From positions 77,435,677 to 77,499,676 of the forward strand of contig CM068827.1 of NCBI GenBank assembly GCA_028554795.2: a stretch of 64,000 nucleotides of DNA, in the 5' to 3' direction. The stretch comes from Sinohyriopsis cumingii (taxonomy: Eukaryota; Mollusca; Bivalvia; Unionida; Unionidae). Shown one piece after another: positions 2,037-52,902 of the stretch. Position 1 is the first letter of the stretch, and every line of letters starts with the position of its first letter. The notes below the pieces were generated by a model. The model worked only from the letters and a program-made list of their open reading frames with translations. It was not told where the DNA came from and did no database searches. The position numbers and the translations under genes are program-made.

Positions 2037-3275
2037 ATGGCAAGATTTTGTAAGCTATATTCCTTAATCCGAAAAACTGCATGTGTCTTGGTAGTAACAC
2101 TTATAATCATGGCTGGTCATTGGTTGATATCCAAGAAACAATGTGGATTTAGAAATAATGGATATTGCGCAGGGCTTTTAACGGTAGCTCAAGGAACGCA
2201 GACCGGTTTAATATATCCGGGAAAGAATTCGTGGATTCCGCAGTCTATGTATCGTAACCCGTCTGGACCAATTCATCTCAAACTGAGGGACGGCACTTGC
2301 GTACCGTATACTAATTATACGTTCTTGCCTCTTACTTTAACTTCAGCTTATGTTTTGAATAACCCCGATATTTGTAAATCTAACCGACAATTATCATTCC
2401 TTGTCGTGATAAACAGCGCTGTCCAGAATTTTGATAGACGGAAAGCACTTCGAGAAACTTGGGCCAATTCAAAATTACTGAAATATCCAACACTAAAGGT
2501 GGTATTCCTGTTGGGAAAATCCTCAAATTCTTCCATCCAGAAAATTGTGGAGATGGAACAATCTGTACACCGGGATATAGTGCAAGGCGAGTTCATAGAC
2601 GAGTATCACAACCTAACTCACAAGGCAGTTATGGGACTGAGGTGGGTCAGCGAGTTTTGTCAACACGCCCAACTCGTCCTTAAAGTAGACGATGACGTTT
2701 TCCTCAATATTTTTCGAGTTATAGAAGAGATTATGCCCATACATTCTAATACCGGATCTCAAATATTGTGCAACCTTCATTATGTTGATGGAATTGTCCG
2801 TCATGGAAAAATCTGGGCCCTTGATTATGATTATTTCCCCGACTGTGACGATTATCCTTTCTCATTTTGTAACGGAGGTTTTGTGCTAATGCACCAGAAC
2901 GTCGTTCCCCAATTGTTAAAATTAGCCCACACGACACCATTCATCTGGATGGATGATATTTACTTGTACGGAATTTTGGCTAATGTTGCTGAGAACATTA
3001 CATTGAAACACGCTGAAAATTTGTTCAAATTTGATGAAGATGCCGGCCGTTGTTTGAAGGAGTCTACGTATTGTAACATGTTACTGGTATTTACTAAAAA
3101 TACTACCCTTATGAAAATGTACTGGTCGAATGCTCTGCTGCAATCAAGGGAACTTGTAGTCAAGTATGCAGATGAACAATTCTTTCCTGTTGGTGAAGGA
3201 ATTTATTTGAAACCACGGAAGATCATGTTTCTACAATTAACATTTTTAAGTTTCTGTTCCATCCGACGTTTGTGA
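2037..3275 (+). CDS. Beta-1,3-galactosyltransferase-like protein (GT31)
   Basis: A 412-residue protein with the layout of a Golgi type II glycosyltransferase: a short basic cytoplasmic tail, one membrane anchor (about residues 15-31) and a lumenal catalytic domain. GT31 landmarks appear in order: R-E-T-W-A near residue 140, the strand VVFLLGK, the DxD-type metal/UDP-sugar site K-V-D-D-D (218-220), F-C-N-G-G-F (277-282, standing for the usual Y-C-S-G-G-G) and W-M-D-D-I-Y-L (304-310, in place of the common E-D-V). Several N-glycosylation sequons are present. The family transfers galactose or GlcNAc in beta-1,3 linkage onto glycoproteins or glycolipids; the acceptor cannot be read from sequence. 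The gene is intronless in its coding part, common for GT31. The ATG is the first in frame and follows an acceptor-like CACAG. It is the only clear host gene in the window. Confidence 0.85.
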   Translation: MARFCKLYSLIRKTACVLVVTLIIMAGHWLISKKQCGFRNNGYCAGLLTVAQGTQTGLIYPGKNSWIPQSMYRNPSGPIHLKLRDGTCVPYTNYTFLPLTLTSAYVLNNPDICKSNRQLSFLVVINSAVQNFDRRKALRETWANSKLLKYPTLKVVFLLGKSSNSSIQKIVEMEQSVHRDIVQGEFIDEYHNLTHKAVMGLRWVSEFCQHAQLVLKVDDDVFLNIFRVIEEIMPIHSNTGSQILCNLHYVDGIVRHGKIWALDYDYFPDCDDYPFSFCNGGFVLMHQNVVPQLLKLAHTTPFIWMDDIYLYGILANVAENITLKHAENLFKFDEDAGRCLKESTYCNMLLVFTKNTTLMKMYWSNALLQSRELVVKYADEQFFPVGEGIYLKPRKIMFLQLTFLSFCSIRRL

Positions 3276-15202: not shown

Positions 15203-15337
15203 GCTTGTACCACAGGGGCTCGTATCGTTGCTTACTATTGACCTGTCATACATGTACTATATAATAACTACAGTTTTACATAGTACATGTGTGACAGGTC
15301 AATTGTAAGCAACGATACGAGCCCCTGTGGCTTGTAC
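15203..15337. mobile_element. hAT-like MITE with 8-bp target duplication
   Basis: The element itself is 15211-15329 (119 bp). It is nearly one long palindrome: CACAGGGGCTCGTATCGTTG at the left returns as its reverse complement at the right, with arms of about 50 bp and a short loop around 15263-15277. It is flanked by identical 8-bp sequences GCTTGTAC (15203-15210 and 15330-15337). An 8-bp target duplication with CAGGGG-type ends is the hallmark of hAT transposons. No protein fits inside, so it would have moved with a transposase from elsewhere. Confidence 0.88.
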
Positions 15338-28309: not shown

Positions 28310-28514
28310 TCAATGACTTGATTTTTTATAGGTAGGCTATTACAGTTGACCTTTTACTATTGGAATGCATTTCGTTATGTAAACATTAATTTCTTGCAGA
28401 TTACAAAAAAACTAGAGCCAATTTTGCAATTTGACTGTCATATTCGTGTTCAGCACATAAAAATTGATAAGAATTGACTAATTTTATTTCAGTAACATGA
28501 CTTTTGTAAAAATT
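28310..28514. other. 3' non-coding part of the nested transposon
   Basis: AT-rich, with no clear AATAAA. It ends in the right inverted repeat. Confidence 0.6.
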
Positions 28515-28526
28515 TGTTGTCCAGTG

Positions 28527-31500
28527 TATTCTAATATGCCTATAAGCGGTTCTCTGCCATCGGCTTTTGCTTTTGAGAGAATTCTCTTTACAGTTTGAAC
28601 TGTTTTCTCCGCTAGGCCGTTCGACTGAGGGTATGTGGGACTCCATGTAACATGTTTAAAGTCCCATTCTTTCGCGAAGCTTGCGAACTCTCGGGAAGAA
28701 TAGCATGTTTGATTGTCGCTGACAACGACTTCCGGTATTCCGAAGCGCGCGAATATGCTTTTCATGTGATTAATAACAGTGCAACTTTTTGAGCTTGCGA
28801 GTGCCTTAACTTCAAAGTAGCGACTGAAATAATCTACTACAACAATGTAATCTTTATTATCCCATGTAAATAGGTCTGTGGCGACTTTTTGCCATGGATA
28901 TTCAGGGACGTCATGGGGGATGAGAGGTTCCTTTTGGTTAGAACTTCTGCGTTCCAAGCAGATAGAGCATTTTGACACTACATCGGAAATGTCAACTGAG
29001 ATTCTTGGCCAGAACAAGACATCTCTGGCTCTTTTCAGACACTTCTCAATACCTAAATGTCCCGAATGTACAGTTTCTAGCATTTTCTGCCTGAGGACTT
29101 GTGGTATGACTATTTTTTGACCTTTCAAAATTAACCCATCTACAACCGAAAGTGTATCTCTATAATTCCAATAGTCAATTATCTCTGATTGACAGCTTGA
29201 CCTCTTTTCAGGCCACCCTTCAATTATGACCTGTTTCAGTATGACCAGCTGGGGGTCTTGTTCAGTGAGAGATTGAATTTCTTCCTTCTTACGATCAGAT
29301 ATAGGTAATGCTGATAACACCATATGCACATGCATATCTATACCTTCAGATAAGGTGGGGAGTGTATCAGATAAAAACTTACGGGAGAGTGTGTCTGCTA
29401 CGGGTATGTTCTTACCTTGGTAATGTTTTACCTCTAGGTCATAACGCTGCAGCTCCAAAAGCATGCGTTGTAGTCTCGGTGGGGCTGCGTAGAGGGGCTT
29501 TTTCATTATAGCGACAAGTGGAAGGTGATCAGTTTGAACGTGTACCTTTCTCGCGTATACATAATGATGGAACCGTTTGCATCCGAACAGTATAGCGAAC
29601 ATTTCTTTCTCTATCTGAGCATAATTAATTTCAGTTGTAGTCAAGGATTTTGATGCATAAGCCACGGGCTTATCATCTTGCATTAGGGCGGCACCGAGCC
29701 CATATTTTGACGCATCAACTTGCAAAGTCAGTGGTTTCTTAGGGTCAAAGTAGGACAGAACAGGTCCCGGGCTTATAGTAATTATGTCTTTGACCTTTTG
29801 AAATGCGTCTATTTGCGGAGAGTCCCATGAAAACTCTACGTCTTTCGCTAACAGTTGTCTTAACGGACTGGTGACCCCAGCCAAATTTGGGGCAAATTTG
29901 GACAAGTAGTTAACCATGCCAAGAATGGTTTCTAACTCTGCGCGGTTACGAGGGGGTTCCATTTCTCTGACCGCTGATACTTTGGCAGGGTCGGGTTTGA
30001 GACCTTCTGCTGACAGAATGTGCCCGAAGTACTGTACTTCTGTAACACCTACTTCTAGTTTTTCCTCATTAAGCCGGATTCCTTTTTCGAGGGAACGTTT
30101 GAGAACATTTCTCAAATTTGTATCATGTTCGTCGCGTGTGCGTCCGAAAACTAGTATATCGTCGCAAATCGAAACAATACCACTTGAACCTTCAAAGCTC
30201 TCATCGATCTGCCTTTGGAATTCATCCTGAGATGATTTCAAACCAAATGGGAGACGCAAGAAACGGTAACGGCCGTAAGGGGTGTTGAAAGTTGTGAGGT
30301 ATGATGAGTCACGTGCCAGTTTTATTGCCCAATATCCTGACCGTGCATCCAATTTGGTGAAGTATTTTGCACCTGATAATTGGGGTAGGATATCGTCTAG
30401 TGTGCGCATAGGGTAATGGGGACGCAAAATTGCTTTATTAAGATCTTGTGGGTCGAGACATACCCTTAGTTTACCCGATTGCTTTTCTACGACAACCATA
30501 GAATTTACCCATGCTGTAGGTGATGTAACCGGGGCAATGATATTTTCGTTTTCCATGCGATCAAGTTCAGTTTTGAGTCTGTCTTGAAGTGCGACAGGTA
30601 CTCGCCGCGGAGGGTGCACTACAGGTGTAGCCTTGGGGTCGATGTGGATGGTACATTCCCCAGGGAAAAGACCTATGCCGTTGAAGACTTCGGCATATTC
30701 CTTGAGAACAACTGCATTAGTGAGGGGCGTACTCTTATTACATTGTAAATTTGACATCTGTGTCTGAACGGAGTATGTAAATTTAACTAAGCCTAACTCC
30801 ATACAAGATTGTAAACCAAGAATAGGTGGTGCTTTCGTTTTAACAATGTAGAACTCGAGTTCATGTGTACGTTCAGTGCGCTTACATGTGAGATTGACTG
30901 TACCCATTGTACTCAATAATTTGCCGTCATATGCGGATAATGTGCTTAATGTAGGTTGAAGTGGATGTTTAATGCCTAGCTTTTTGAATATATGCGATGG
31001 TATGATGTTAACTTGAGAGCCAGTATCCAATTTAAAATCAGTAGAAACTAAATTAGGTCCTACCTCTATCGCCGCATACGCCTGGCCATTAGCAATTATA
31101 TCCCTTTTTACACTGTCAATATATAAATCCTCGTTTTTATGTTCATTGTTAATCACACTGACCGTTTTTGATCTGCACACTTTCTCAAAGTGATTGAGTT
31201 TATGACACTTATTGCAAGTCTTTCCTTTTGCAGGGCACTTGTCCTGGCTTGAATGTGACTTGTATCCGCAGTGTCCACAGGTCGCGTTGACGCTCCGTCT
31301 GGAAGATGTGGTCCATTTCTTCTTTGGCTGTAGTTCTTTTGTCTTGGTCTGTCGTTGAATTGTCGCATGTACTTCCGGTCTGGCTGATGCAGACATGGTC
31401 TGGAGCTGCTCCTGGGCATATTCATGGCTTTGACTGATGTTAATAGCCTTTTCCAAGGTCAACTTTTCACCTTCGTTGATAAGTTTTTCTCGTATCCTTG

Positions 31501-31924
31501 GTGACGATACCCCGAAGACAATTCTATCACGAATCATGTCGTCTTCGTCTTTGAAGAGACAGTCCTTGGCCAAAAGTTTCAGTGAAGTCACATATTGGTC
31601 TATTGTCCTGGAGCCTTGAATTTCATTGTTAAACTTGAATCTGGCAAAGACCGGATTTAATTTTGGTTGCACGTGATGTTTGAATTTTGTAAAGAGCGTT
31701 GATGGGTCCTTTTTATCTTCATCCGTCATAGTCCATGTGTTGAAAATATCTCTACCTTTGTCGCCTACCCAAAGTAGAATGTAGTTGGCTTTGACCGCAT
31801 CACTTCTTCTGCTCATCGGTCCATTAAATATTAATTCACAGTGTTGTTGGAATTTAGCCCATGAGTTGGTAAGGTTGGAATTGTCCCAGTCCATGGTAGG
31901 GGTTGGCACGCCGGAAAGATCCAT
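28527..31924 (-). CDS. Gypsy gag-pol polyprotein, 5' part (truncated by insertion)
   Basis: A single minus-strand frame from 31924; the annotated stop at about 28484 lies in the inserted transposon. Order: gag capsid-like region (to about residue 190); two zinc knuckles (C-G-H-C-G-Y-K-S-H and C-N-K-C-H-K-L-N-H-F-E-K-V-C, about 217-251); aspartic protease (L-D-T-G-S-Q-V-N); RT (L-D-P-Q-D-L-N-K, T-K-L-D-A-R-S-G-Y, active site I-C-D-D-I-L-V rather than the usual Y-V-D-D); RNase H (L-Q-V-D-A-S-K-Y-G-L-G-A-A-L); integrase zinc-binding domain (H-S-G-H-L-G-I, C-S-I-C) and catalytic D, D, E (D-L-F-T-W-D, V-V-S-D-N, N-G-L-A-E). Gag and pol share one frame. The protein loses its integrase C-terminus to the insertion, so the copy cannot encode a full integrase now. 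LTR identity shows it was active recently. Confidence 0.93.
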
Positions 31925-43625: not shown

Positions 43626-43725
43626 TTTATTAGTAGTAAGGTGGGACGGTCTAGGGACTAGGGGAGTTCCATGTTAAAAAGGCAATATCCACTCTGGGGA
43701 CTACGTAAATTTAACATGGGAAGCA

Positions 43726-44006
43726 ATATCCACTCTGGGGACTATATAAATTTAACATGGGGAAAAAAAAGGCATCCACTCTGGGAACAAGGGAATTTAA
43801 CATGGGAGAAAAGAAATATCCATTCTAGGGACAAAGGCAATTGAAACATGGGAGAAAAAAAGCAATTCTAGGGACAAAGGCAATTGAACATGGGATTTTT
43901 TATTTTTTTAAAAATTAAAAAAATAAAAAATAAAAAAGGGGTAGGCAATGGAAAGTCAATATCTTTTCGAGAGACGTGGGTGGCCCTGAAAAGGGCCTTT
44001 GGATTT
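43726..44006. repeat. Left terminal inverted repeat of the Polinton
   Basis: Its reverse complement is 52620-52902 with a few differences. The outer part is a short tandem array of roughly 40-bp units (ATATCCACTCTGGGGACTAT, AAATTTAACATGGG), extended to about 43650 on this side by extra copies. The inner part holds an A/T-run segment, GGGGTAGGCAATGGAAAGTC and a histone-type stem-loop (43982-43997). Confidence 0.88.
43982..43997 (-). terminator. Histone-type 3' stem-loop for the left terminal gene
   Basis: On the minus strand: CCAAA, GGCCCTTTTCAGGGCC, ACCCA. A perfect 6-bp stem with a TTTC loop, identical in layout to the stem-loop bound by SLBP at the end of metazoan replication-dependent histone mRNAs, followed by GAGAAAAGA-type purines where the U7 target (HDE) sits. 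It begins 23 bases after the stop of the minus-strand gene at 44021-44251. Confidence 0.85.
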
Positions 44007-44020
44007 ATGTTAATATGCCC

Positions 44021-44251
44021 TTAACATAAAGGGCATCTGCGGCATCTTCTTGTCCTCAAGCTGCGTCTTAGAGTAGGGCCATAAATCAGAGTCCTCTTGA
44101 GGCAACCTTGTCTTTCCACATAGACTCTTCGTATCCACAGACTGGTGTCTGACTTGTGGATAACTGTCCACTTGGATCGGACATACATTAGCATGTCCGT
44201 CCTAAACATCATTGAAGACACAAGGGCGGATGATTCGACTGTGGTCCACAT
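44021..44251 (-). CDS. Small basic protein of the Polinton left end (unknown function)
   Basis: 76 residues starting M-W-T-T-V-E-S-S-A-L-V-S-S. A Trp- and Arg-rich middle (K-W-T-V-I-H, S-L-W-I-R-R-V-Y-V-E) is followed by an Arg/Cys-rich tail ending C-R-R-C-P-L-C. No family is known to me. A homologue with the same start (M-W-T-G-D-K-F-S-A-I-I-S-S), A-I-W-K-K-R-V-C-V-E and, one frame away, C-L-K-R-V-L-I-Y-R-P lies at 62500-62744, next to a decayed copy of the same stem-loop. That conservation argues for a real gene. A TATA box lies about 45 bases upstream. The basic tail suggests nucleic-acid binding (inference). Confidence 0.65.
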   Translation of the reverse strand: MWTTVESSALVSSMMFRTDMLMYVRSKWTVIHKSDTSLWIRRVYVERQGCLKRTLIYGPTLRRSLRTRRCRRCPLC

Positions 44252-44293
44252 CTTGAGGCGCCGAGAACAGGTGAATCAATGCAGTGAACTGCG

Positions 44294-44303
44294 CTTATTT
44301 ATA
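44294..44303 (-). promoter_or_regulatory. TATA box of the left terminal gene
   Basis: TATAAATAAG on the minus strand, 43-52 bases before the ATG at 44251. It is the left arm of a divergent promoter shared with the plus gene at 44471. Confidence 0.65.
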
Positions 44304-44401
44304 GGTAGAGGAAGGATTGAAACGGATTGAGTTCATTGACCAATCCAAACACGCGTTACAAAATTCAGTCAGTCCGCATCCAATCCGAAGAGAACAGTCT
44401 G

Positions 44402-44423
44402 TGACGTCACGTGGTCTATATAG
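44402..44423 (+). promoter_or_regulatory. CRE, overlapping E-box and TATA box
   Basis: TGACGTCA (44402-44409) is a perfect CRE palindrome and overlaps CACGTG (44408-44413), an E-box. TATATAG (44417-44423) follows directly. The ATG of the next gene is about 48 bases downstream. Sites are recognised by motif; no binding is shown. Confidence 0.7.
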
Positions 44424-44470
44424 ATTCGCTAGCGCCTGTGTGCAGTCAATCTATGCGACAGTGATTCAAC

Positions 44471-45036
44471 ATGACGGAAACTCAGAAAACGATCCATTGG
44501 GGTGCACCAGCAGTGGAGACCTCCCAAGAGAACCCGGACTTACTTTCAGAAGAGGTGAATTGGGATTTTGTGGATTTTCTTACCTCGCAAGAATTTGTTC
44601 CGGAACCTTCGTCACCTTCATTACCGCAATTAGAGAATTTTAGACAGAGACAGAAAGAAGAATTGGAGAAATTTATACAACGACAAAAGGAAGCGGAACA
44701 AGCTTTTCTCCTACAGCAACAGCAGCAAGAAAAAGAGGTAAGAAAAAAAAACAACAACAACAAGAAGTAGCAGCAAAGAAACAAGAGGGTGAAAATCAAA
44801 CGGTCACGGTACTGTTGGACATTTTAGCGGAGTTAAGAAGTCTGAAACAAATGTATCAGACTTCTTTATTACGACCGAAGAGAATACGACCTTCCCGAGC
44901 TAAACACGTCAACCCTGTGACTAAGCCTACCGTACCACCCTTAGTGATTTCAACCCAATCATCATCAACAGTACGCAGTCCAGAAGTAGGCCTTGGCCGT
45001 GGCAAAGGCTTAAGGCAGTTAAAGTTGATTGCTTAA
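44471..45036 (+). CDS. Gln/Glu-rich coiled-coil protein with a probable -1 frameshift site
   Basis: The zero frame (44471-44770, 99 aa) starts M-T-E-T-Q-K-T-I-H-W, has an acidic N-terminus and then a Gln/Glu/Lys coiled coil (about residues 55-90). At 44746-44752 the zero-frame codons read A AAA AAC, a textbook -1 slippery heptamer. The -1 frame is open from that exact point to the stop at 45034-45036 and adds about 94 residues (Q-Q-Q-Q-E-V-A-A-K-K, then L-L-D-I-L-A-E-L-R-S-L-K and a basic Pro/Ser tail). The zero frame stops 15 bases after the heptamer. A 9-A run at this place could also have gained or lost a base. The stop is followed within 26 bases by a histone-type stem-loop. Family unknown. 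Confidence 0.65.
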
Positions 45037-45061
45037 ACTCACCCCTACACCAAAAACCAAA

Positions 45062-45077
45062 GACCCTTTTCAGGGCC
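45062..45077 (+). terminator. Histone-type 3' stem-loop after the coiled-coil gene
   Basis: CCAAA, GACCCTTTTCAGGGCC, ACCCA. It has one A-C mismatch in the second stem pair, otherwise matches the consensus. It is followed by GTCTCTCGAAAAGAGATAGA, matching the sequence after the TIR stem-loops. Confidence 0.8.
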
Positions 45078-45313
45078 ACCCACGTCTCTCGAAAAGAGAT
45101 AGACTTTTAATTGCCAATAACTCAAAAATCAACAAATAAACCCATTTTACCCCTATAGTACGTGTATATGAGTGCGTGAGTGTAGCTTCTTATTTAAAAT
45201 CAAAACTGAAAGACACTTACCTTATATAATTACTGTATTCTTTTATCAATAGTTACAATCCAATTCACAATTCACAACAGAGCACTTTAAAAAGTTCTTA
45301 CACTCCTTCTGTC
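45078..45313. other. Spacer between convergent genes
   Basis: AT-rich; resembles the inner TIR just after the stem-loop, then no recognisable signal. Confidence 0.5.
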
Positions 45314-45784
45314 TCATTGTTTAGTCTGTTTTTTAAATTTCTTCACCGTCACAGTCTTTTCCTCCTCTTCCTCTTCACTTTCTTTCCTTCTTCTTTTCTT
45401 CTCCTCTTTCTTTTTCTTTACCTGGCTGCTTTCTTCCTCTGAATAATCCCTCTCTTCCTCTGAAGAATCCCTCTCTTCTTCTGAAGAATCCCTCTTTTCT
45501 TCTGACTCCTCTTGTTTCTTTTTTGGGCAATCTGGAGACCAATGTCCTTTTTCTTGACAATAATAACAGGTATCTTGACTTTTGTCTTTTCTAGCCCCTT
45601 TTTTTCTTTTTTGACGGTCTGGACACTCTGAAGACCAATGCCCTTTCTTCTGACAGATATAGCAAGTATCTTCACTTTTATCTCGAAAGGAAGGAGAGTA
45701 GTCCGTCGGCTGGTCTGAAGAGAATTTTCTAATGACCCCTCACAAAGCTCTGATGAAACGTTCGATTTGGCTAGTCTCTTCCAT
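45314..45784 (-). pseudogene. Double CCHC zinc-knuckle protein with one nonsense codon
   Basis: In one continuous minus frame from the ATG at 45784: M-E-E-T-S-Q-I-E-R-F-I-R-A-L, a TGA at codon 15 (45740-45742), then an Asp/Ser stretch, two near-identical zinc knuckles (C-Y-I-C-Q-K-K-G-H-W-S-S-E-C and C-Y-Y-C-Q-E-K-G-H-W-S-P-D-C, both C-x2-C-x4-H-x4-C), three acidic repeats (R-D-S-S-E-E-E type) and a Lys/Glu tail ending at 45314. CCHC knuckles bind single-stranded nucleic acid. The TGA fits a CGA-to-TGA change, so the gene is either freshly inactivated or starts later without a good ATG. Without the stop it would be about 156 residues. A TATA box lies upstream. Competing frames in this region are composition shadows. 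Confidence 0.65.
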
Positions 45785-45837
45785 CGTTGTGCTCGGTTAG
45801 AGAGTGAAATGAATAGTGAAAGGACAAGACACACACC

Positions 45838-45848
45838 CTTTTATATAC
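45838..45848 (-). promoter_or_regulatory. TATA box of the zinc-knuckle gene
   Basis: TATATAAAAGG on the minus strand, about 55 bases upstream of the ATG at 45784. Confidence 0.7.
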
Positions 45849-45918
45849 GCTGGTCTGCAATGACTATAAATTAGCCCATGGTGTTTAAACTTTAGTCATT
45901 TGACGTTTTTCACTCAAG

Positions 45919-47650
45919 ATGAAACGATCCTATTCATTCGAGAAGAAAGAAGAAGAAAGTAAGAGGCAGAAACGTGATCTATCGCCTCGTACCAGGGCTG
46001 AAGTCTTGGCACAAATTCATGCCAGTGATTTTGAAGAGGACATGAGTGAACCAGAATCCGAACACTCTAAACCAAGTTCACCACCCTTAGTCAACCCTGA
46101 AAAGTACTATTCCATTCGAGAGACGGAAAAGCGCTCCTCTAGAAAATTTAAAATCACGGCTTACAAATACACGGTGAAGTTTAAAGATTTCAAGGCTGAA
46201 GTACCGTTAGAGAAAGCAGAAGTGTTCATCACTGGGGTGTGGGATTCTTTGCTCACCGCACTCAAGCGACAATGTCAACCCAAAGAAGACGATCGTTTGA
46301 GACTTCCATACAACACGACGGTTTGAAATCCCCTGTTTGGATCGAGTTTAGCACCCCTGCAGAATTGACTGCTTCCAAAGTCATGGACAAGATTCAACAC
46401 GTGCAACAATCTAATGACCAGTTTGACATCACCGATGGAAAAGCCACACTCGACATGACCCACGTCTCTCCTCCTCAAGGGACCGGACAACGCAATAAGG
46501 TGTTACTGGTGAGCGACCTTCGCATCACCAAAACGAGCCTCGTCCAAATTCACAACCCTCAAGACCAGATGTGTTTAGCCAGGGCTATCGTGGTGGGACG
46601 AACCTATGCCAACAAGAACGACACGGTAGAATGGAAAAGAACCTGGGAGAACATTCGAAAATCGAACCGAGCCAAACAACGAAGTGATGCAGAACTCCTG
46701 TTATAACAAGCTGACCTGTCCAAAGACACACCCTGCGGTATTCCTGAAATGCAAACATTGCAAGATGTCCTAGCTCCATTCTACACCTTGAAAGTGCACC
46801 CTCAAGAAGTGCGCGGGCCTCTGTTGTTTCGAGGCCAAGACTTTAAGGATGGAAAATACATTCACCTTTATCATCACGATGACCGATTCGATACCATTAC
46901 CACTATCACCGGATTCCTGGGATACAAATATTACTGTGAGAAATGTGACTATGGTTATAATAATCGAGATTAACACAAACATTGCGGATGGAAATGCTCA
47001 GGATGTTTGGCCTCTCCACCCTGTCTGAGCGAAGGACAAGAAAGAGTACATTGTCCTGCTTGTCTGCGCACGTTTGTCAGCCCTGCCTGTTACCAACAAC
47101 ATCTGAAGACGCATGGTTCACAGCAGAAATGTGCTTGTCAACTGCTGAGATTGTGCCCTACGTGTGGACAAGGCCTACGTACCAATAATGCCAAGACACA
47201 CGTATGTTCAGGAAAGAAAAAATGTCACATTTGTCACCACATCGTGGACTTGGAACACCAATGCTACGTGCAAAAATACCAACCCCCACCAGAGAAAGAG
47301 GACGGTCACAAGAAGAAAGGCAATTTCATCTTTTTTGATTTCGAATGCATGCAAGAGACCGGTATTCACATTCCTAATTTCTGCGTGGCTCATCGAGCGT
47401 GCTAGAAGTGCATTCAAGAACCTATCTTCAGTCATTACCCTCAATGCAGCAAGATTCCTGGAGGACGTGAAAAAATCTTTCGAGGACCAAACACGCTAGC
47501 CGATTTTGCCCTATGGGTCTTAGACCCCATCGACAACACGTGGAGCCAAGAGGACATCAAACGTTATGGAGATTGTCATCGTCATGCCACAGTGATGGCT
47601 CACAATTTCTCCGGATACGATGGACAGTTTCTTTTGAGATACAATGTCAT
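45919..47650 (+). pseudogene. Protein-primed DNA polymerase B, N-terminal and exonuclease part only
   Basis: The frame from 45919 (M-K-R-S-Y-S-F-E-K-K) shifts near 46305 by what looks like one lost base, then continues in one frame to about 47650. That frame is interrupted by stops at 46704 (TAA), 46971 (TAA) and 47403 (TAG). Readable features: zinc-binding clusters (H-C-P-A-C-L-R-T-F, C-P-T-C-G-Q-G-L, C-H-I-C-H-H-I-V), the ExoI motif F-D-F-E (Asp at 47337, Glu at 47343) and the ExoII motif A-H-N-F-S-G-Y-D (Asn at 47604, Asp at 47619). This is the 5' third to half of a Polinton polymerase; ExoIII and all polymerase motifs are missing. It cannot replicate the element. Confidence 0.8.
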
Positions 47651-47903
47651 CATCGACAAACAAAACCCCAAAGAAGCTTTCATGAGGGCTGGCAAAAATG
47701 TCTTGCTGCAAACGGGTAAAGACCTTTTGGGCCGACGAGAAACACCTATAAATGCCCTGCACGCTACCGAGTCAGGCATTCAGCAAGGACAAGGCAGAAA
47801 GAGACGACGAAGAAAACACCCTTTCACCAGACTTCACACTTCTAAAGCTAGAAAGACAAAGAAAAGAAAAACCGTTCGAGACTTAGACGTTTTCGATTAT
47901 TAA
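47651..47903 (+). pseudogene. C-terminal piece of a basic virion-core-like protein fused to the polymerase relic
   Basis: After the ExoII motif, with no frame break, the sequence changes to N-P-K-E-A-F-M-R-A-G-K-N-V-L-L, then D-L-L-G-R-R-E-T-P, a Gly/Gln turn, R-K-R-R-R-R-K-H and a tail ending D-L-D-V-F-D-Y. A Lys/Arg-rich tail immediately before the capsid gene is what Polinton and adenovirus-like core or minor virion proteins show. I read this as the end of that gene, joined to the polymerase by an internal deletion. The junction (about 47645-47660) is inferred from the change in character. Confidence 0.5.
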
Positions 47904-47926
47904 AGTATTGAGACGCAGAGAAAAAA

Positions 47927-49243
47927 ATGATGCACCGAGAATCTTGCGCCTGTTCCAAGTCGGAACTGGAACTGTTTGCCATGCCCCCCACCATGATGAC
48001 CATGCAAGAATCCCAATGGGTGGAATTTCATCCAGTCTCCTCTTTGACGGATTCAGCTCCCATCGAGTTTGAAATCAAAGGACAGCCTGAAGATTACATC
48101 GATCTGAATAGCAGTTACTTGTACTTGAAAGTCAAAGTAACCGAAGTGGACGGTGACCCTCTCACTGATACGTCCAGAGTAGCTCCCGTCAACAATTTCA
48201 TGCATTCCTTGTTCAGTGGAGTGGACTTGTATTTAAATAACAAACTGGTCAGCAGCAGCATGGATACTTACCCTTACCGAGCGTACCTGGAAAATCTCTT
48301 GACGTACGGAAAAGAAGCCAAAAACACTCATCTGGATGCTTGCGTGGTATGGAAGCCTGACGCATTAGGTGCAAAGTTCGACAGCACTACAATTGATGGG
48401 GATGCTCAAAATTTATCGGGATTTATAGAACGAAGAAAGAAAATTGCACTAAGTCGTAGTTTAGAACTGATGGATCGTTTACATTTGGACATGTGGTTGC
48501 AAGAGAAATATTTGCTGAACGGAGTGGATGTCTGCTTGAGACTGAATCGCAGCAGTGCCGCTTTCCATCTGTTGTCTAATGCTAACGATTACAAAACTGT
48601 CATCCAAGAAGCCAGACTCTACGTGCGACGTGTGGAAGTGTTACCTAAAGTAGGTAACGACGTCAGTCAGACGTTGAGCAGAACGACCGCCAAGTATCCG
48701 ATCCGACGAGTGGAAGTGAAAACCTTCACCATTCCTAGGGGACAGCGATCCATGATCGAAGATCATCTGTTCCAAGGACAGCTACCCAAGCGTTTGATCC
48801 TTGGTATCGTCGAGAATACAACCTTCAACAGAGCTGTCGATAAAAATCCTTTCAACTTTCGACACTTTGGCGTGTCCAAGATCGAAGTCAGTCGCGATGG
48901 CAAGACCTTGTGTACCCGACCTTTCGAGCCTAACTTTACCCAGAACAATTACTTGAGATCGTACTTGTCCCTGTACGAAGCCACCGGACAGTTAGGAACC
49001 AACACCAGTCACGGCATTACGTACGAGGATTATGCAGGAGGCTATGCTTTGTGGGGTTTTGATTTCACTCCGGACCAAGGCAGCGACGAGGGACATTTCT
49101 ACCCTATAAAATCAGGCCAGATTCGAGTGGAAATTCAGTTTGCAAACCCACCCCCTGATGTAACGGTGAACGTCATCCTGTGTGCAGAATTCGATAATAC
49201 GATAGAAATCAACAGTTTGAGAGAAGTCATTCTAGACTATTAG
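47927..49243 (+). CDS. Probable major capsid protein (F54H12.2-like, Polinton)
   Basis: 438 residues, fully open. It belongs to the group often annotated F54H12.2-like in invertebrates, which are Polinton proteins; related Polinton and adintovirus proteins of this size are double jelly-roll major capsid proteins. Visible traits: beta-rich composition, F-E-I-K-G-Q-P-E-D-Y-I-D-L near residue 45, a Y-L-Y-L-K-V-K-V strand, P-V-N-N-F-M-H-S-L-F-S-G-V, Y-P-Y-R-A-Y-L-E and a C-terminal E-F-D-N-T-I-E-I-N. Two adjacent ATGs give the start (M-M-H-R-E-S). It is the least damaged gene of the element and is followed after 5 bases by the next ATG, so it may be co-transcribed with the next two genes. Which of the Polinton capsid proteins it is rests on family memory. 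Confidence 0.75.
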   Translation: MMHRESCACSKSELELFAMPPTMMTMQESQWVEFHPVSSLTDSAPIEFEIKGQPEDYIDLNSSYLYLKVKVTEVDGDPLTDTSRVAPVNNFMHSLFSGVDLYLNNKLVSSSMDTYPYRAYLENLLTYGKEAKNTHLDACVVWKPDALGAKFDSTTIDGDAQNLSGFIERRKKIALSRSLELMDRLHLDMWLQEKYLLNGVDVCLRLNRSSAAFHLLSNANDYKTVIQEARLYVRRVEVLPKVGNDVSQTLSRTTAKYPIRRVEVKTFTIPRGQRSMIEDHLFQGQLPKRLILGIVENTTFNRAVDKNPFNFRHFGVSKIEVSRDGKTLCTRPFEPNFTQNNYLRSYLSLYEATGQLGTNTSHGITYEDYAGGYALWGFDFTPDQGSDEGHFYPIKSGQIRVEIQFANPPPDVTVNVILCAEFDNTIEINSLREVILDY

Positions 49244-49248
49244 AAGGT

Positions 49249-49749
49249 ATGGAAGACTGTTATCCCTCTTTACCTAGTGGAGAAACTTTGGAGATGGAAT
49301 GTGAGGAGACCGTGGAAAAAGAATCTCAAAACAAAGACGACGAAGTTATGATGAAGTCAAAATGGCCAGAACAAGAAGCGCATTTAGTCTCCTGTTTTGC
49401 CAAACACTTGGTCGAAAAAATGACGGAATTGATCAAAAAAGAGTGCTATGGATGTCAAAACGATCATCCCAGTCAAATTCAACACGATAAATGCCTGATG
49501 CTGAGTCAAGAAGAAAAATTGGACGAGTATCTGGACGATGCTTGGAGTCTCATCTCGGACGAAGTCGTGTTGCATCAGTGGTATAAAGACTTGCGTGAAC
49601 ATTCTTGTCCACCATTAACCACTCAAGAGATCGATCGTATCGAAGCTCTCCTGAATCAGAGTGAGAAGACGAAACGAAGAAACGGTTATTTGTCAGACAT
49701 TTTCAAGCAAAAAGTCAGGATCGAATTGATGACTTATTATTACCTGTGA
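49249..49749 (+). CDS. Cys/His-rich Polinton protein of unknown function
   Basis: 166 residues. An acidic N-terminus is followed by C-Y-G-C-Q-N-D-H-P-S-Q (Cys66, Cys69, His73) and H-D-K-C (His79, Cys82), a probable zinc site, then a helical C-terminal half (E-E-K-L-D-E-Y-L-D-D-A-W). A protein with this C-x2-C...H-P-S-Q...H...C pattern sits beside capsid and protease genes in other invertebrate Polintons, as I recall; its role is not established. It begins 5 bases after the capsid stop and ends 19 bases before the protease ATG. Confidence 0.7.
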   Translation: MEDCYPSLPSGETLEMECEETVEKESQNKDDEVMMKSKWPEQEAHLVSCFAKHLVEKMTELIKKECYGCQNDHPSQIQHDKCLMLSQEEKLDEYLDDAWSLISDEVVLHQWYKDLREHSCPPLTTQEIDRIEALLNQSEKTKRRNGYLSDIFKQKVRIELMTYYYL

Positions 49750-49768
49750 AGAAGAAAAAAAACGAAAC

Positions 49769-50320
49769 ATGGATACCTGGGAACTTTATTACCTTTTGAA
49801 CCACAGTTCGTATACGGCTTCTTGGAATCCTGTCGTCTGTGCTAAAGATGAACTCCCTCATCTCAAACCTCAAGACCATCTAGCTTATGTGATCAACACG
49901 GACGACAGTCATCTCCCAGGAACCCGCTGGGTAGCCGTCTACTTTCCTCAAGAAGGATGTGTGGAATATTTCGATTCGTACGGATTGCCTCCTTTGGAAG
50001 ACGATATCATTGACTTTATGAGAAGAAATGCTCAGACCACCCGATTCAATAATGTGAAATTACAAGGCACAGATTCCTTGGTGTGTGGACAATATTGTGT
50101 GTATTTTCTGCATCATCGCAGCCTGGGCTATTCCTTAGAACATTTAGTGACTCATTTTGATCCTCGTTCTTCTTCTAGAAATGATGTGAAAGTAGATGAA
50201 TGGTTTTGTGACCATTATGCTTATCTTTTGTCTCTAGCTAGGAAACGTAGTGTCCATCAATGGCCTAATGACTTCCAACAGTGGAAATCACAATTTCATT
50301 CACAACGTTGCCAACCCTGA
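49769..50320 (+). CDS. Adenain-type (C5) maturation protease with catalytic His replaced
   Basis: 183 residues, slightly shorter than adenovirus protease. Motifs in order: G-T-R-W-V-A-V-Y-F (residues 51-59), E-Y-F-D-S-Y-G (Asp69), L-Q-G-T-D-S-L-V-C-G-Q-Y-C (Gln99, Cys106). In C5 proteases the residue before the Trp is the catalytic His; here it is Arg53 (CGC at 49925-49927), one transition away from CAC. Asp, Gln and Cys are intact. The protease normally cleaves virion precursors during assembly; with Arg in this place it should be inactive. The related relic at 43236 keeps T-H-W. Confidence 0.85.
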   Translation: MDTWELYYLLNHSSYTASWNPVVCAKDELPHLKPQDHLAYVINTDDSHLPGTRWVAVYFPQEGCVEYFDSYGLPPLEDDIIDFMRRNAQTTRFNNVKLQGTDSLVCGQYCVYFLHHRSLGYSLEHLVTHFDPRSSSRNDVKVDEWFCDHYAYLLSLARKRSVHQWPNDFQQWKSQFHSQRCQP

Positions 50321-50450
50321 CCAAAATAATGTGTAAATTGAAAAAAAATGTTTGATGTTATATTGTTGGATTATTGTTAAAAATGTTAGAGTTGTTTGTT
50401 AGTGTTAAGTGATTTTGAATAAAAAATGTGTTTTGAAACAAATGCCTTTG
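50321..50450 (+). terminator. Polyadenylation region of the capsid-protease block
   Basis: GAATAAAAAA at about 50418-50427, followed by TGTGTTTTG (GT-rich element). An ordinary AATAAA-type end, unlike the stem-loop ends of the small genes. Confidence 0.7.
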
Positions 50451-50547
50451 TCTTTTGTTTGGCTATAAGAATGTTGATTCATGCTCTTTGACTTCTCTCT
50501 ATCCCTCTCATGACACTCATTGAACGTTGCGGCTCGAAAACCGTAGA

Positions 50548-50582
50548 GGGATGTTTTCCTTCACGTCCGCGCTTTGACTTTA
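50548..50582 (+). promoter_or_regulatory. Shared promoter motif, copy 1
   Basis: GGGATGTTTTCCTTCACGTC followed by CGCGCTTTGA, then a TATA-like CTTTAAGAACC. About 50 bases upstream of the preferred ATG at 50630. Copies occur at 51408, 52090 and 52158. Confidence 0.75.
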
Positions 50583-50629
50583 AGAACCGGGGTAGTTTAC
50601 AGTCTAACCATCCATTGTCGACTACGAAG

Positions 50630-50923
50630 ATGTGCTCCAAACTAGCTAAGCTAAACGAAGCCTACGTAAATTTGCATAGGGTCAGACACAGTCTGATACC
50701 GAAGCCAGAAGAGATAGAGAATGTGAGAATGTTAAAAGTCACTGAAGACCTGATAGAAGAGCTCTTCAGAGAAGAAGTGAACAGGGAGAAAGAAGAATGG
50801 ACAGAGAAGTACAGACTTCAGAGACAGCAGCAACAGCAACAACAGCAGCAGCAGCAACCTGAACCTGACAGAGGCTTTGTCGATTGTCGTATCGACACCA
50901 AAGAGTTCTTCTTCTCTTTCTGA
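50630..50923 (+). CDS. Small coiled-coil protein, cassette 1
   Basis: 97 residues from M-C-S-K-L-A-K-L-N-E-A-Y. The frame is open further upstream to 50510, but that stretch contains the promoter motif, so the internal ATG is preferred. It has an N-terminal amphipathic helix, a Glu/Arg coiled coil (E-E-L-F-R-E-E-V-N-R-E-K-E-E-W), a run of about 11 Gln and a short C-terminal tail. The start resembles the proteins of cassettes 2 and 3 (K-L or K-M, Leu every 6-7 residues, then charged helix), suggesting diverged tandem duplicates. Function unknown. It ends about 95 bases before a histone-type stem-loop. Confidence 0.65.
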   Translation: MCSKLAKLNEAYVNLHRVRHSLIPKPEEIENVRMLKVTEDLIEELFREEVNREKEEWTEKYRLQRQQQQQQQQQQQPEPDRGFVDCRIDTKEFFFSF

Positions 50924-51017
50924 AGAAGCAGACCTATCGTCAGAAAGTCTATCCTCAGAGGATGTCGCATTCTTAGAAATTAAAAGATTGCCATAGCAAA
51001 CAAAAAAAAAAAAAAAC

Positions 51018-51033
51018 AGCCCTTTTCAGGGCT
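51018..51033 (+). terminator. Histone-type 3' stem-loop, cassette 1
   Basis: AGCCCTTTTCAGGGCT with perfect 6-bp pairing, then ACCCA, then CTAGAAAAGAAA purines. The 5' flank is an A run plus C. Confidence 0.82.
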
Positions 51034-51407
51034 ACCCAATACTCTAGAAAAGAAATAACAATCCATTTTCCAATGTGTGTATGTAGAGTAGTTTGAATAT
51101 AAACACTAGCTCTTTTTTATAGTGTGAGGGTATGTGTTTGTGTATAGGATTGTGTGTTTGTAAGTGCTCACGTACGTTGGTGTGGATAGTAGATTAAGAT
51201 CATGTTTTTTTTTTTTTTGCTGTTTGACGTGTGGGGAGAGTAGATTTGGGGTTTGATTGGATTGCTTTGCGTATGTGAATAGTATATTGAAGTGATTAAT
51301 GAAAATTTTAAAATTAGTAATGGGTAGTATAAAAAAGTGAGTGCGTGTTTCTTTTAGGTCCGCGCGTTTGTTTGGTACTGATCTAGGTAATATCAATTTT
51401 GTTTTAA
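51034..51407. repeat. Spacer duplicated between cassettes
   Basis: Shares CCAATGTGTGTATGTAGAGT, GAATATAAACACT and TTTTTTATAGTGT with 51841-52090. The part 51357-51407 (TCCGCGCGTTTGTTTGG, TGATCTAGGTAATATCAATT) recurs almost unchanged at 52107-52157. This indicates tandem duplication of the whole cassette, or later gene conversion. Confidence 0.8.
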
Positions 51408-51446
51408 GGGGATGTTTTCCATCACGTCCGCGCTTTCACTATAAAT
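51408..51446 (+). promoter_or_regulatory. Shared promoter motif, copy 2, with TATA
   Basis: GGGGATGTTTTCCATCACGT then CCGCGCTTTCAC, followed directly by TATAAAT (51440-51446). About 50 bases before the ATG at 51496. Confidence 0.78.
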
Positions 51447-51495
51447 TGAAACTCGCTGGGCAGTCTAGCTACCCTGTTCATTCGTTAACAAGACA

Positions 51496-51792
51496 ATGCA
51501 TACCAGAATTGTAAAGCTTCTAGAACTCCAGATGCACCTGGAATATGCCAGGCGCCTGTTAAATGAACTGGCCGCGGAGGCCATTGTCGAAGAGGGAAGG
51601 ATGAAAGAGGAGGAGGAAAGAAGAAAAAAAGAAGAGGAGGAAAAGGAGAGAAGAAATTTCAGAATCCCAGAGACAGAAAATTGGGATTCTGAAGCCACTT
51701 ATCCCGCCTCTGCACTCCCAAGAAAAAAGGTAAAAGGAGACTGGGGAAGAAGATGTGTGTGTGGTGCCAGGCCTGGAAGGTGCCATCATTAA
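51496..51792 (+). CDS. Small coiled-coil protein, cassette 2
   Basis: 98 residues: M-H-T-R-I-V-K-L-L-E-L-Q-M-H-L-E, a Leu-rich helix, then a strongly charged Glu/Lys/Arg coiled coil (about 35-55), a Pro/Trp segment and a Cys/His end (R-C-V-C-G-A-R-P-G-R-C-H-H) that could bind metal. Same position and general build as cassettes 1 and 3. Function unknown. The stop is 32 bases before the stem-loop. Confidence 0.68.
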   Translation: MHTRIVKLLELQMHLEYARRLLNELAAEAIVEEGRMKEEEERRKKEEEEKERRNFRIPETENWDSEATYPASALPRKKVKGDWGRRCVCGARPGRCHH

Positions 51793-51824
51793 CCAGGTGT
51801 CACTGGAGTTAAAAAAAAACAAAC

Positions 51825-51840
51825 AGCCCTTTTCAGAGCT
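51825..51840 (+). terminator. Histone-type 3' stem-loop, cassette 2
   Basis: AGCCCTTTTCAGAGCT, one C-A mismatch in the stem, then ACCCA and CTAGAAAATAAA. Confidence 0.75.
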
Positions 51841-52089
51841 ACCCAATACTCTAGAAAATAAATAATAATCCATTTGCCAATGTGTGTATGTAGAGTAGTG
51901 TGAATATAAACACTGAATCTTTTTTTTATAGTGTTTGTGTTTGTGTTTGTAAGCGCTGACGTAGGTTTGTGTGGATAGTAGATTTTGGGTTTCATTTTAA
52001 TGCTTTGCGTGTGTAAATAGTAGATTAGGGGTTTGTTTATTGATGCTTCACGTATGTGGATAGTAGATCATATGAAACGAGAAAAGTAG

Positions 52090-52195
52090 GGGATGTTTTC
52101 CTTCACGTCCGCGCGTTTGTTTGGAATTGATCTAGGTAATATCAATTTTGTTTTAAGGGGATGTTTTCCATCACGTCCGCGCTTTCACTATAAGA
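52090..52195 (+). promoter_or_regulatory. Shared promoter motif, copies 3 and 4, with TATA
   Basis: Two copies in tandem (52090-52115 and 52158-52185). The second is followed by CTATAAG (52188-52194). The ATG of cassette 3 is about 50 bases further on. Confidence 0.78.
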
Positions 52196-52244
52196 ACCCA
52201 CAGTATTCGTCGTTCAAACCATTCTACAAAGAATAAAAAAGAAG

Positions 52245-52571
52245 ATGGCTTCGAACCAGCTTGATAAAATGAAAACATTGCAAGACGTCCTGGACAATTT
52301 GGGTATGATAGAGCAAATGTTAGTGAGGTTAAACGAGGATCACTATTCTTATAGCCCCCATCGAGTGAAGATGGAGATTAACAACTTAAGAAAAGTAAAG
52401 GAAATGATAAGTGCTGTGATGAAAGAAATAAAGCAGGAGAAGGAGGATGAAGAGGAAAGGATAAGGATAAGAGCATGGAATGAAAAAATTGAAAAAGAAG
52501 AAGAAGAGGAGGAGAAGAAGAAAGAAGAGAAAAAAAGGAAGAAAAGAAAGAAAAGAAGAGAAAGAGTGTAG
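52245..52571 (+). CDS. Small coiled-coil protein, cassette 3
   Basis: 108 residues: M-A-S-N-Q-L-D-K-M-K-T-L-Q-D-V-L, helices with Leu spacing (N-L-G-M-I-E-Q-M-L-V-R-L), then an almost pure Glu/Lys/Arg tail ending R-E-R-V. Net composition suggests binding to nucleic acid or to a basic/acidic partner (inference). Outermost gene on the right; it reads into the inverted repeat, where its stem-loop lies 59 bases after the stop. Confidence 0.7.
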   Translation: MASNQLDKMKTLQDVLDNLGMIEQMLVRLNEDHYSYSPHRVKMEINNLRKVKEMISAVMKEIKQEKEDEEERIRIRAWNEKIEKEEEEEEKKKEEKKRKKRKKRRERV

Positions 52572-52619
52572 GACAGAAAATAAGAAGTTGGTGGAGAAAT
52601 AGAAGAAATTAGAAGCAGA

Positions 52620-52902
52620 AGAAACCCAAAGGCCCTTTTCAGGGCCACCCAAGTCTCTCGAAAAGAGATTGACTTTCCATTGCCTACCCCTTTTTTATTT
52701 TTTATTTTTTTAATTTTTAAAAAAATAAAAAATCCCATGTTCAATTGCCTTTGTCCCTAGAATTGCTTTTTTTTCTCCATTGTTTCAATTGCATTTGTCC
52801 CTAGAATGGATATTTCTTTTCTCCCATGTTAAATTTCCTTGTCCCCAGAGTGGATGCCTTTTTTTTTCCATGTTAAATTTACATAGTCCCCAGAGTGGAT
52901 AT
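52620..52902. repeat. Right terminal inverted repeat of the Polinton
   Basis: Mirror of 43726-44006, including the stem-loop, GGGGTAGGCAATGGAAAG (as complement), the A/T-run segment and the roughly 40-bp tandem units, ending ...CCCCAGAGTGGATAT. Confidence 0.88.
52631..52646 (+). terminator. Histone-type 3' stem-loop, cassette 3 / right TIR
   Basis: CCAAA (52626-52630), GGCCCTTTTCAGGGCC, ACCCA (52647-52651), then CTCGAAAAGAGATTGA. This is a perfect match to the metazoan histone mRNA layout and the mirror of 43982-43997. Confidence 0.88.

What the first reader, a model, noticed from the sequence alone, without database searches (positions are those of the whole stretch)
43982..52646. Histone-mRNA-type 3' stem-loops on small genes of a Polinton
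Five sites (43982-43997 minus; 45062, 51018, 51825 and 52631 plus) carry the metazoan histone mRNA end: a 6-bp stem with TTTC loop, ACCCA after it, CCAAA before it in three cases, and a purine-rich stretch about 10-15 bases on. Each lies 20-100 bases after the stop codon of a small gene, in that gene's sense. Three stems pair perfectly and two have one mismatch. This spacing is that of replication-dependent histone genes, yet none of these proteins is a histone. If functional, the element would recruit SLBP and U7 snRNP and make non-polyadenylated mRNAs in S phase. I know of no description of this in Polintons.
Basis: partly seen in the sequence, partly recalled or inferred. Interest (0 to 1): 0.92.

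Follow-up and report, generated by a model that had tools for sequence, protein, structure and literature searches.

The report
Histone-like control signals on Polinton genes
A virus-like DNA element in what is probably a bivalve genome carries small non-histone genes that end, and in part begin, with the same control signals as the host's own histone genes, which suggests that it switches them on when the cell copies its DNA.

Summary
All five sites match Rfam's histone 3' stem-loop; two pass the curated cut-off. No others occur in 64 kb (shuffles 0.04). They are not five independent events: two are inner ends of the inverted repeats, two lie in a duplication.

The host genome strengthens the case. 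Its histone genes carry the same stem and a GAAAA downstream element beginning at nt 14-15 after it; the window element has 14 in 5 of 5. In 31 element copies, stem plus downstream element change less than spacer and downstream sequence (22/898 against 262/3043; lower in 30 of 31). MCP-anchored loci keep 11 of 12 stems.

Best reading: a Polinton family that expresses small genes like replication-dependent histone genes. Against: no RNA data, host U7 not secured, AATAAA downstream of four of five stems, four distant Polinton contigs without the stem-loop.

The parts
43685..44006 (.). left terminal inverted repeat, with internal ~41-46-nt tandem units
   Evidence: inverted-repeat arms I1, I2, I5, I7 and direct repeats D5, D7, D8
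43957..44002 (-). histone-type stem-loop and downstream element at the inner end of the left TIR, after the minus-strand gene
   Evidence: RF00032 37.8 bits, over cut-off
44021..44251 (-). 76-aa ORF; its stop lies 23 nt before the stem; an ORF of 76-80 aa recurs in sister copies
   Evidence: sister copies L029, L075, L077, L080
44471..45036 (+). small gene; frame broken in this copy; intact copies of 183-195 aa elsewhere; 20 relatives in public proteins
45057..45102 (+). histone-type stem-loop and downstream element (stem with one mismatch here)
   Evidence: RF00032 27.6 bits; stem fully paired in 11 of 15 copies, 5 of 6 pairs in the other four, this one included
45314..45739 (-). open stretch with two CCHC zinc-knuckle motifs; no histone-type 3' end
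45919..47903 (+). remnants of the region that precedes PolB in sister copies, interrupted; the Pfam polymerase domain is not found in this copy
   Evidence: no Pfam hit here; DNA_pol_B_2 downstream of the same region in L043 and L041
47927..49243 (+). capsid-type protein (F54H12.2-like), 438 aa
   Evidence: 1452 homologues at E<=0.001; 96 copies scored in own genome
49249..49749 (+). 166-aa gene of unknown function between the capsid-type gene and the protease
49769..50320 (+). cysteine-protease-type gene
   Evidence: PDB sequence match to ASFV S273R, E 0.0025; no Pfam hit
50418..50423 (+). AATAAA after the protease gene
   Evidence: also in sister copy L044:3073
50548..50573 (+). histone-type promoter element (D3) of the gene starting at 50630
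   Evidence: 23/24 nt identical to the host H2B promoter
50630..50923 (+). small glutamine-rich gene; frame ambiguous after the Q run
51013..51058 (+). histone-type stem-loop and downstream element (A-U closing pair)
   Evidence: RF00032 31.0 bits
51348..51370 (+). H4-type histone promoter word
   Evidence: 23/23 nt identical to L065:2848-2870, upstream of host H4
51409..51434 (+). histone-type promoter element of the gene at 51496, followed by CTATAAA
   Evidence: 24/24 nt identical to the host H2B promoter, 25/26 to host H1
51496..51792 (+). 98-aa small gene
51820..51866 (+). histone-type stem-loop (one mismatch and an altered downstream element here)
   Evidence: RF00032 24.1 bits; stem fully paired in 8 of 12 copies
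52090..52114 (+). second, upstream copy of the histone-type promoter element
   Evidence: 22/23 nt identical to the host H2B promoter over 52092-52114
52158..52183 (+). histone-type promoter element of the gene at 52245, followed by CTATAAG
   Evidence: 24/24 nt identical to the host H2B promoter
52245..52571 (+). 108-aa small gene
52626..52671 (+). histone-type stem-loop and downstream element at the inner end of the right TIR
   Evidence: RF00032 37.9 bits, over cut-off
52622..52902 (.). right terminal inverted repeat

Best explanation
The window holds a shortened copy (about 9.2 kb) of an abundant Polinton family. Its small genes, next to the inverted repeats, are built like the host's replication-dependent histone genes. 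Shown by sequence: all five end in the host's histone 3' signal (6-bp stem with a 4-nt loop, then a GAAAA-type downstream element at the host's spacing; imperfect at two sites of this copy), and three of five start with the host's histone promoter element and a TATA-like box. Inferred: the pre-mRNAs bind SLBP and U7 snRNP, are cut just after the stem and stay without poly(A), so these genes are expressed with the histones in S phase, when a DNA element can replicate. The structural block ends with an AATAAA and no stem after the protease, so the two gene classes may use different 3' ends.
For: Rfam matches and chance control. Host histone genes carry the same stem and downstream core; GAAAA begins at nt 14, 14, 14, 15, 15 after the stem in the host and 14 in 5 of 5 window sites. 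Selective conservation in 31 gene-anchored copies (the window and copies not fetched for that stem): stem plus downstream element 22 substitutions in 898 cells against 262 in 3043 for spacer and downstream sequence, Fisher p=6e-12; gaps 1 of 899 against 88 of 3131; lower in 30 of 31 copies, Wilcoxon p=1.7e-6; spacer alone 34 of 310 (which corrects a copy counted twice). Closing pair G-C in 48 and A-U in 13 of 65 distinct rows, 14 double-changed cells against 3.2 in shuffles (rows were collected by a pattern asking for at least 5 of 6 pairs). MCP-anchored loci: 11 of 12 stems fully paired, wobbles allowed. Promoter: 24/24 nt with H2B, 25/26 with H1, 23/23 with H4; before 17 of 18 gene copies; 5.6% against 11.4% substitutions, p=1.3e-4; 6,368 exact 19-mers genome-wide against 0 for the reversed control. 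36 of 36 fetched RF00032 hits, of 75 listed, lie in this element. The 44471 gene is under constraint, pooled dN/dS 0.47 in 10 intact copies.
Against: No RNA data: cleavage, lack of poly(A), SLBP binding and S-phase expression are untested. AATAAA lies downstream of four of five stems (45135, 51857, 52724 on plus, 43904 on minus), although host H4 has one too. Host U7 was not securely found: RF00066 gave 0 hits (it rang in no control genome either), and a pattern-derived candidate scores 17.9 bits against a cut-off of 34. Four distant Polinton contigs lack the stem-loop, so it is at most a lineage trait. The histone promoter element was not found before the 44471 and minus-strand genes. The sites are partly duplicates. 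Nine of 31 stems have one unpaired position, two of them in the window.
Confidence: 0.8

Rival explanations
1. Hitchhiking: an ancestor recombined with the histone cluster and the pieces were amplified passively, without function.
For: The family is abundant, the sites are partly duplicates, and 9 of 31 stems have an unpaired position.
Against: Stem and downstream element change less than the spacer between them and the sequence beyond in 30 of 31 copies; the closing pair varies in a paired way; the promoter is conserved too; the signals sit at gene starts and ends on the right strand. Passive copying does not give this pattern.
Confidence: 0.08
2. A DNA-level role: the palindrome in the inverted repeats serves replication, packaging or recombination, and its likeness to a histone end is secondary.
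For: Two of five sites sit at the inner ends of the inverted repeats.
Against: Three sites are internal, each after a gene and in that gene's sense. The downstream element and its fixed spacing are kept and match the host histone genes, which a DNA palindrome would not need.
Confidence: 0.05
3. The stem binds SLBP and affects stability or translation, but the mRNAs are mostly cut and polyadenylated at downstream AATAAA sites.
For: AATAAA lies downstream of four of five stems in the window.
Against: The U7-type downstream element, which matters for cleavage only, is as conserved as the stem (7 of 309 and 15 of 589 cells changed). The host H4 gene also has a downstream AATAAA.
Confidence: 0.07

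Closest known systems
Metazoan replication-dependent histone genes (Rfam RF00032; host H1, H2A, H2B, H3, H4 in the ~8.3-kb tandem repeat, L065)
   Same: Stem, loop class, flanks, spacing to the downstream element, short distance after the stop, short genes, promoter element with TATA-like box.
   Different: The encoded proteins are not core histones; the genes sit in a dispersed mobile element and two stems are part of its inverted repeats.
Polintons/Mavericks and adintoviruses
   Same: Inverted repeats, PolB in sister copies, F54H12.2-like capsid-type protein, viral-type cysteine protease.
   Different: Histone-type promoters and 3' ends; no RF00032 match in four distant Polinton contigs L031-L034. 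The window copy is shortened.
S-phase-exploiting DNA viruses with early genes (adenovirus, polyomavirus, parvovirus; recalled, no call)
   Same: A DNA element profits from the replication phase of the cell; small genes lie near the genome ends.
   Different: As recalled, those viruses use poly(A) ends; imitation of histone genes at both ends is not known to me for any of them.

Membership tests
Histone 3' end (RF00032 type) | 6-bp stem with 4-nt loop and conserved flanks | tested here: met
   two of five window sites over the gathering score, three below; sister copies up to 45.6 bits
Histone 3' end (RF00032 type) | purine-rich downstream element at fixed distance, as in the same organism's histone genes | tested here: met
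   GAAAA begins at nt 14-15 after the stem in the host, at 14 in 5 of 5 window sites; conserved
Histone 3' end (RF00032 type) | base pairing of the downstream element with host U7 snRNA | tested here: inconclusive
   RF00066 found nothing; candidate L067 pairs better than shuffles with 4 of 5 window sites, not with the 51825 site, but was chosen partly by that sequence
Histone 3' end (RF00032 type) | located within about 100 nt after a stop codon, sense strand | tested here: met
   20-94 nt in the window; 27-38 nt in host H1, H2B, H3, H4
Histone 3' end (RF00032 type) | SLBP binding, cleavage after the stem, no poly(A), S-phase accumulation | not testable with these tools
   no RNA data
Histone gene | encodes a histone | tested here: not met
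   tblastn with H2A, H2B, H3, H4: 0 of 30 sister loci; Pfam none in the two small genes scanned
Host histone gene promoter | GATGTTTTCCATCACGTCCGCGCT-type element upstream of a TATA-like box | tested here: met
   for three of five genes only
Polinton/Maverick | terminal inverted repeats | tested here: met
Polinton/Maverick | family-B DNA polymerase of the viral/organellar type | tested here: met
   PF03175 in sister copies L043, L041; not found in the window copy
Polinton/Maverick | double jelly-roll major capsid protein | tested here: inconclusive
Polinton/Maverick | adenain/Ulp1-type cysteine protease | tested here: inconclusive
   weak sequence match to ASFV S273R, E 0.0025; no Pfam hit
Polinton/Maverick | integrase, packaging ATPase, target-site duplication, length of 15 kb or more | not tested
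   the window copy is about 9.2 kb and shortened; complete copies were not read

The most novel reading that the evidence does not exclude
A lineage of virus-like DNA transposons has taken over the expression programme of replication-dependent histone genes (promoter and poly(A)-independent 3' end) for its small genes. They would be transcribed and processed with the histones in S phase, perhaps in histone locus bodies, the phase its DNA replication needs, while its structural genes keep the ordinary poly(A) route. It would be the first viral or transposon use of the SLBP/U7 pathway known to me.
Probability: 0.65. Interest if true: 0.92.

Novelty: new variant of a known kind. Interest (0 to 1): 0.88.

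Why it matters
Replication-dependent histone mRNAs are, as recalled, the one metazoan mRNA class that normally ends without poly(A), and SLBP/U7 processing is treated as theirs alone. A mobile element that uses it for non-histone genes would show that the pathway can be borrowed and give a natural test of which signals suffice. It would also offer a simple account of how a Polinton times its genes to S phase. The number of exact promoter words (6,368) means that the family could be a real load on the host's SLBP and U7.

Tried and rejected
Other Polintons: the MCP alone found nothing in IMG/VR, nor did an alignment of 30 MCPs. The alignment found four contaminant contigs in bacterial assemblies, none with RF00032 at E<=1. 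A general histone-stem pattern in IMG/VR gave one match, L074, inside a 784-aa ORF and without a downstream element: taken as chance. A stricter pattern gave 0.

U7: the Rfam family found nothing. A pattern gave 161 matches against 120 for its reversed control, so it hardly exceeds chance. Seven places were fetched; only L067 looks like U7, and it is kept as a lead.

The RF00032 list is no census: only 75 of 589,472 first-look candidates were scored, and the host histone stems are missing from it although they pass the cut-off.

Considered and rejected: the miRNA and bacterial sRNA matches (below their cut-offs); origin of the small genes from core histone genes (no similarity). One search counted one copy of the 51496-type gene twice (L025 and L044 overlap); one search repeats the count without it, and the conclusion stands.

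Not done: a whole-genome count of the stem-loop (9 attempts unanswered); a genome search with the right-end DNA (unanswered, not repeated); divergent Polinton lineages in the same genome; structure prediction; target-site duplications.
Full report
WHAT WAS CLAIMED AND WHETHER IT IS THERE. Rfam's covariance model RF00032 finds all five: 37.9 and 37.8 bits (above the gathering score of 34) for the two at the ends, and 31.0, 27.6 and 24.1 for the inner ones. A plain pattern finds the same five and nothing else in 64 kb; shuffled sequence gives 0.04 per window. The sites are not independent: the outer two are the mirrored inner ends of the inverted repeats, and the 51018 and 51825 sites lie in an 87% identical 141-nt repeat.

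THE ELEMENT. Inverted repeats run from about 43685-44006 to 52622-52902. Between them lie a minus-strand 76-aa ORF, the 44471 gene, a zinc-knuckle stretch, interrupted remnants of the region before PolB, a capsid-type gene, a 166-aa gene, a protease-type gene and three small genes. The capsid-type protein has 1452 homologues at E<=0.001. Of the 120 listed, those with an organism name are 'F54H12.2-like' proteins of Mercenaria, Ostrea, Saccostrea and Crassostrea, besides one from a Thiodiazotropha assembly. The protease matches ASFV S273R at E 0.0025. No polymerase domain was found in the window copy, but sister copies carry DNA_pol_B_2 (PF03175, E 8e-30 in L043). That F54H12.2-like proteins are the Polinton capsid protein is recalled; I could not fold it, and its profile matches no PDB chain.

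THE HOST'S OWN HISTONE GENES. The genome has over 100 H4 genes in repeats of about 8.3 kb. In the unit L065 H1, H2A, H2B, H3 and H4 each end in a stem (GGCCCT-TTTN-AGGGCC; H1 with GGTCCT) followed by a GAAAA element; the stems of L066 are the same (H1 recognised from its translation). GAAAA begins at nt 14, 14, 14, 15 and 15 after the stem in the host and at 14 in 5 of 5 window sites. Stop-to-stem distances are 27-38 nt in H1, H2B, H3 and H4, and 20-94 in the window element. The host stems score 35.0-39.4 bits, the best element stems up to 45.6.

RECURRENCE. Of 75 RF00032 hits listed in the host genome (only 75 of 589,472 candidates were scored) I had the surroundings of 36. All 36 lie in this element and none shows a core histone. 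Ten longer regions have stems at the same gene ends, though not every region spans every gene, and L036 has no strict-pattern stem after its 44471-type gene (a looser match is).

SELECTION. For copies anchored on the coding region I left out those whose own stem had brought them in: three of 18 copies of the 44471 gene, and the 52245 gene altogether. One doubly counted copy was also removed. This leaves 15, 12 and 4 copies of the 44471, 51496 and 50630 genes, each set with the window. Changes from the majority are 15 of 589 in the stem plus ACC and 7 of 309 in the downstream element; they are 34 of 310 in the spacer between the two and 72 of 921 and 156 of 1812 further on. Stem plus downstream element against those three: 22/898 against 262/3043, Fisher p=6e-12; gaps 1/899 against 88/3131, p=7e-9. 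The 30 nt before the stem were not part of the test (90 of 912). Cells of related copies are not independent, so I also compared within copies: the rate is lower in 30 of 31 (the exception is L020), Wilcoxon p=1.7e-6 (all). Of the 31 stems 22 are fully paired and 9 have five of six pairs. Two conserved blocks at fixed distance with a free spacer is what histone pre-mRNA processing requires. In 66 aligned sites (61 element, 5 host) the closing pair is G-C in 48 and A-U in 13 of 65 distinct rows, and double-changed cells are 14 against 3.2 in shuffles. The A-U form belongs to the two duplicated sites, so it may be one or two events, and the sites were collected by a pattern that asks for at least five of six pairs. 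The 44471 gene evolves under constraint (pooled dN 0.042, dS 0.089, 10 intact copies) and has 20 relatives among public proteins.

THE PROMOTERS. Upstream of the three right-hand genes lies a repeated element (family D3). It is also found upstream of host histone genes: 24 of 24 nt identical to the H2B promoter for two genes (window 51411-51434 and 52160-52183, E 4e-8) and 23 of 24 for the third, 25 of 26 to H1, 19 of 20 to H2A in reverse orientation; a second word (51348-51370) is identical in 23 of 23 nt to the H4 promoter. As a control, 22 other 2-kb pieces of the window gave, at E<=0.01, only a simple repeat and the stem-loop of the left end itself. The element sits 75-95 nt before the ATG, usually followed by a TATA-like box, in 17 of 18 gene copies whose start and upstream sequence were in hand (the miss is the 50630-type gene of L038), and changes less than its surroundings (24/431 against 290/2536, p=1.3e-4). 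Its 19-nt core occurs 6,368 times in the genome, its reversed control 0 times; about 110 would come from the histone repeats and the rest presumably from element copies (inference). In the region between the 44471 gene and the minus-strand gene the element was not found.

THE OTHER GENES. The protease, the last gene of the structural block, is followed by AATAAA (50418; also L044:3073) and no stem. This suggests two classes of 3' ends, but AATAAA also lies downstream of four of the five stems (45135, 51857, 52724; 43904 on minus) and of host H4.

U7. Rfam's U7 model finds nothing in the host (it rang in none of the controls either). A pattern gave a candidate (L067) that Rfam scores at 17.9 bits, below its cut-off of 34. 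It pairs with host and element downstream elements better than most shuffles, but not with the 51825 site of this copy, and it was partly chosen by that sequence. It is a lead only.

BREADTH. Four Polinton contigs from contaminated bacterial assemblies (tubeworm symbiont, Bathymodiolus symbiont, Breoghania MAG, Rickettsiaceae MAG; MCP 27-45% identical) have no RF00032 match at E<=1. Some of these contigs are short and may not hold the small-gene ends. The trait is at most that of a lineage, not of Polintons at large. DNA of closer relatives in other species could not be reached here.

NOVELTY. Ten searches of the open-access library returned nothing relevant: 'polinton' with 'histone stem-loop' 0 papers; histone, stem-loop, polinton 3; 'histone stem-loop' with 'transposable element' 0; with virus and SLBP 14, 13 listed; histone, stem-loop, U7 snRNP, virus, non-polyadenylated 3; stem-loop binding protein with viral mRNA and histone mRNA 5; polinton with polyadenylation signal 10; histone, stem-loop, endogenous viral element 10; adintovirus 29, 20 listed; a U7 search 1. 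These were judged from listings and abstract starts. In one adintovirus paper (PMC11071296) I saw the two passages that mention histone; they concern histone-like proteins. Subscription papers are mostly missing from the library.

VERDICT. The mechanism is inferred but specific and easy to test.

Noticed in passing
window 51348-51370, 51409-51434, 52158-52183; L065:2848-2870, 3677-3700, 7074-7099: Promoter words of host H4, H2B and H1 recur upstream of the element's small genes; 6,368 exact 19-mers in the genome.
   Followed up: yes
window 28484-31924 (minus): 1146-aa open frame with reverse transcriptase, RNase H and integrase domains: a Ty3-type retroelement.
   Followed up: no
window 15228-15312: Long near-perfect hairpin that matches several miRNA models below their cut-offs; perhaps a small palindromic transposon.
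   Followed up: no
window 2037-3275: 412-aa ORF with a galactosyltransferase domain, perhaps a host gene.
   Followed up: no
window 43682-43894 and 52751-52880: The inverted repeats are built of ~41-46-nt tandem units.
   Followed up: no
L037, L041: Two element left halves lie close together in divergent orientation, so elements may insert into or pair with each other.
   Followed up: no
L065:1993-5220: Host histone genes and the element may share a third block (ATTTTGCCA-like) some 10-20 nt after the downstream element; not tested.
   Followed up: no
L067:68-119 (minus): Candidate host U7 snRNA, below Rfam's cut-off, with an 11-nt perfect complement to the H2B downstream element.
   Followed up: partly
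G000, MCP copies: 81 of the 96 best-scoring capsid-gene copies listed (my count) have no stop inside; there were 29,169 first-look candidates. The family looks young and abundant.
   Followed up: partly
L043:409-1527 (minus): 373-aa open frame beside an element, with Pfam hits that have no single passing stretch; probably a tandem-repeat artefact.
   Followed up: no
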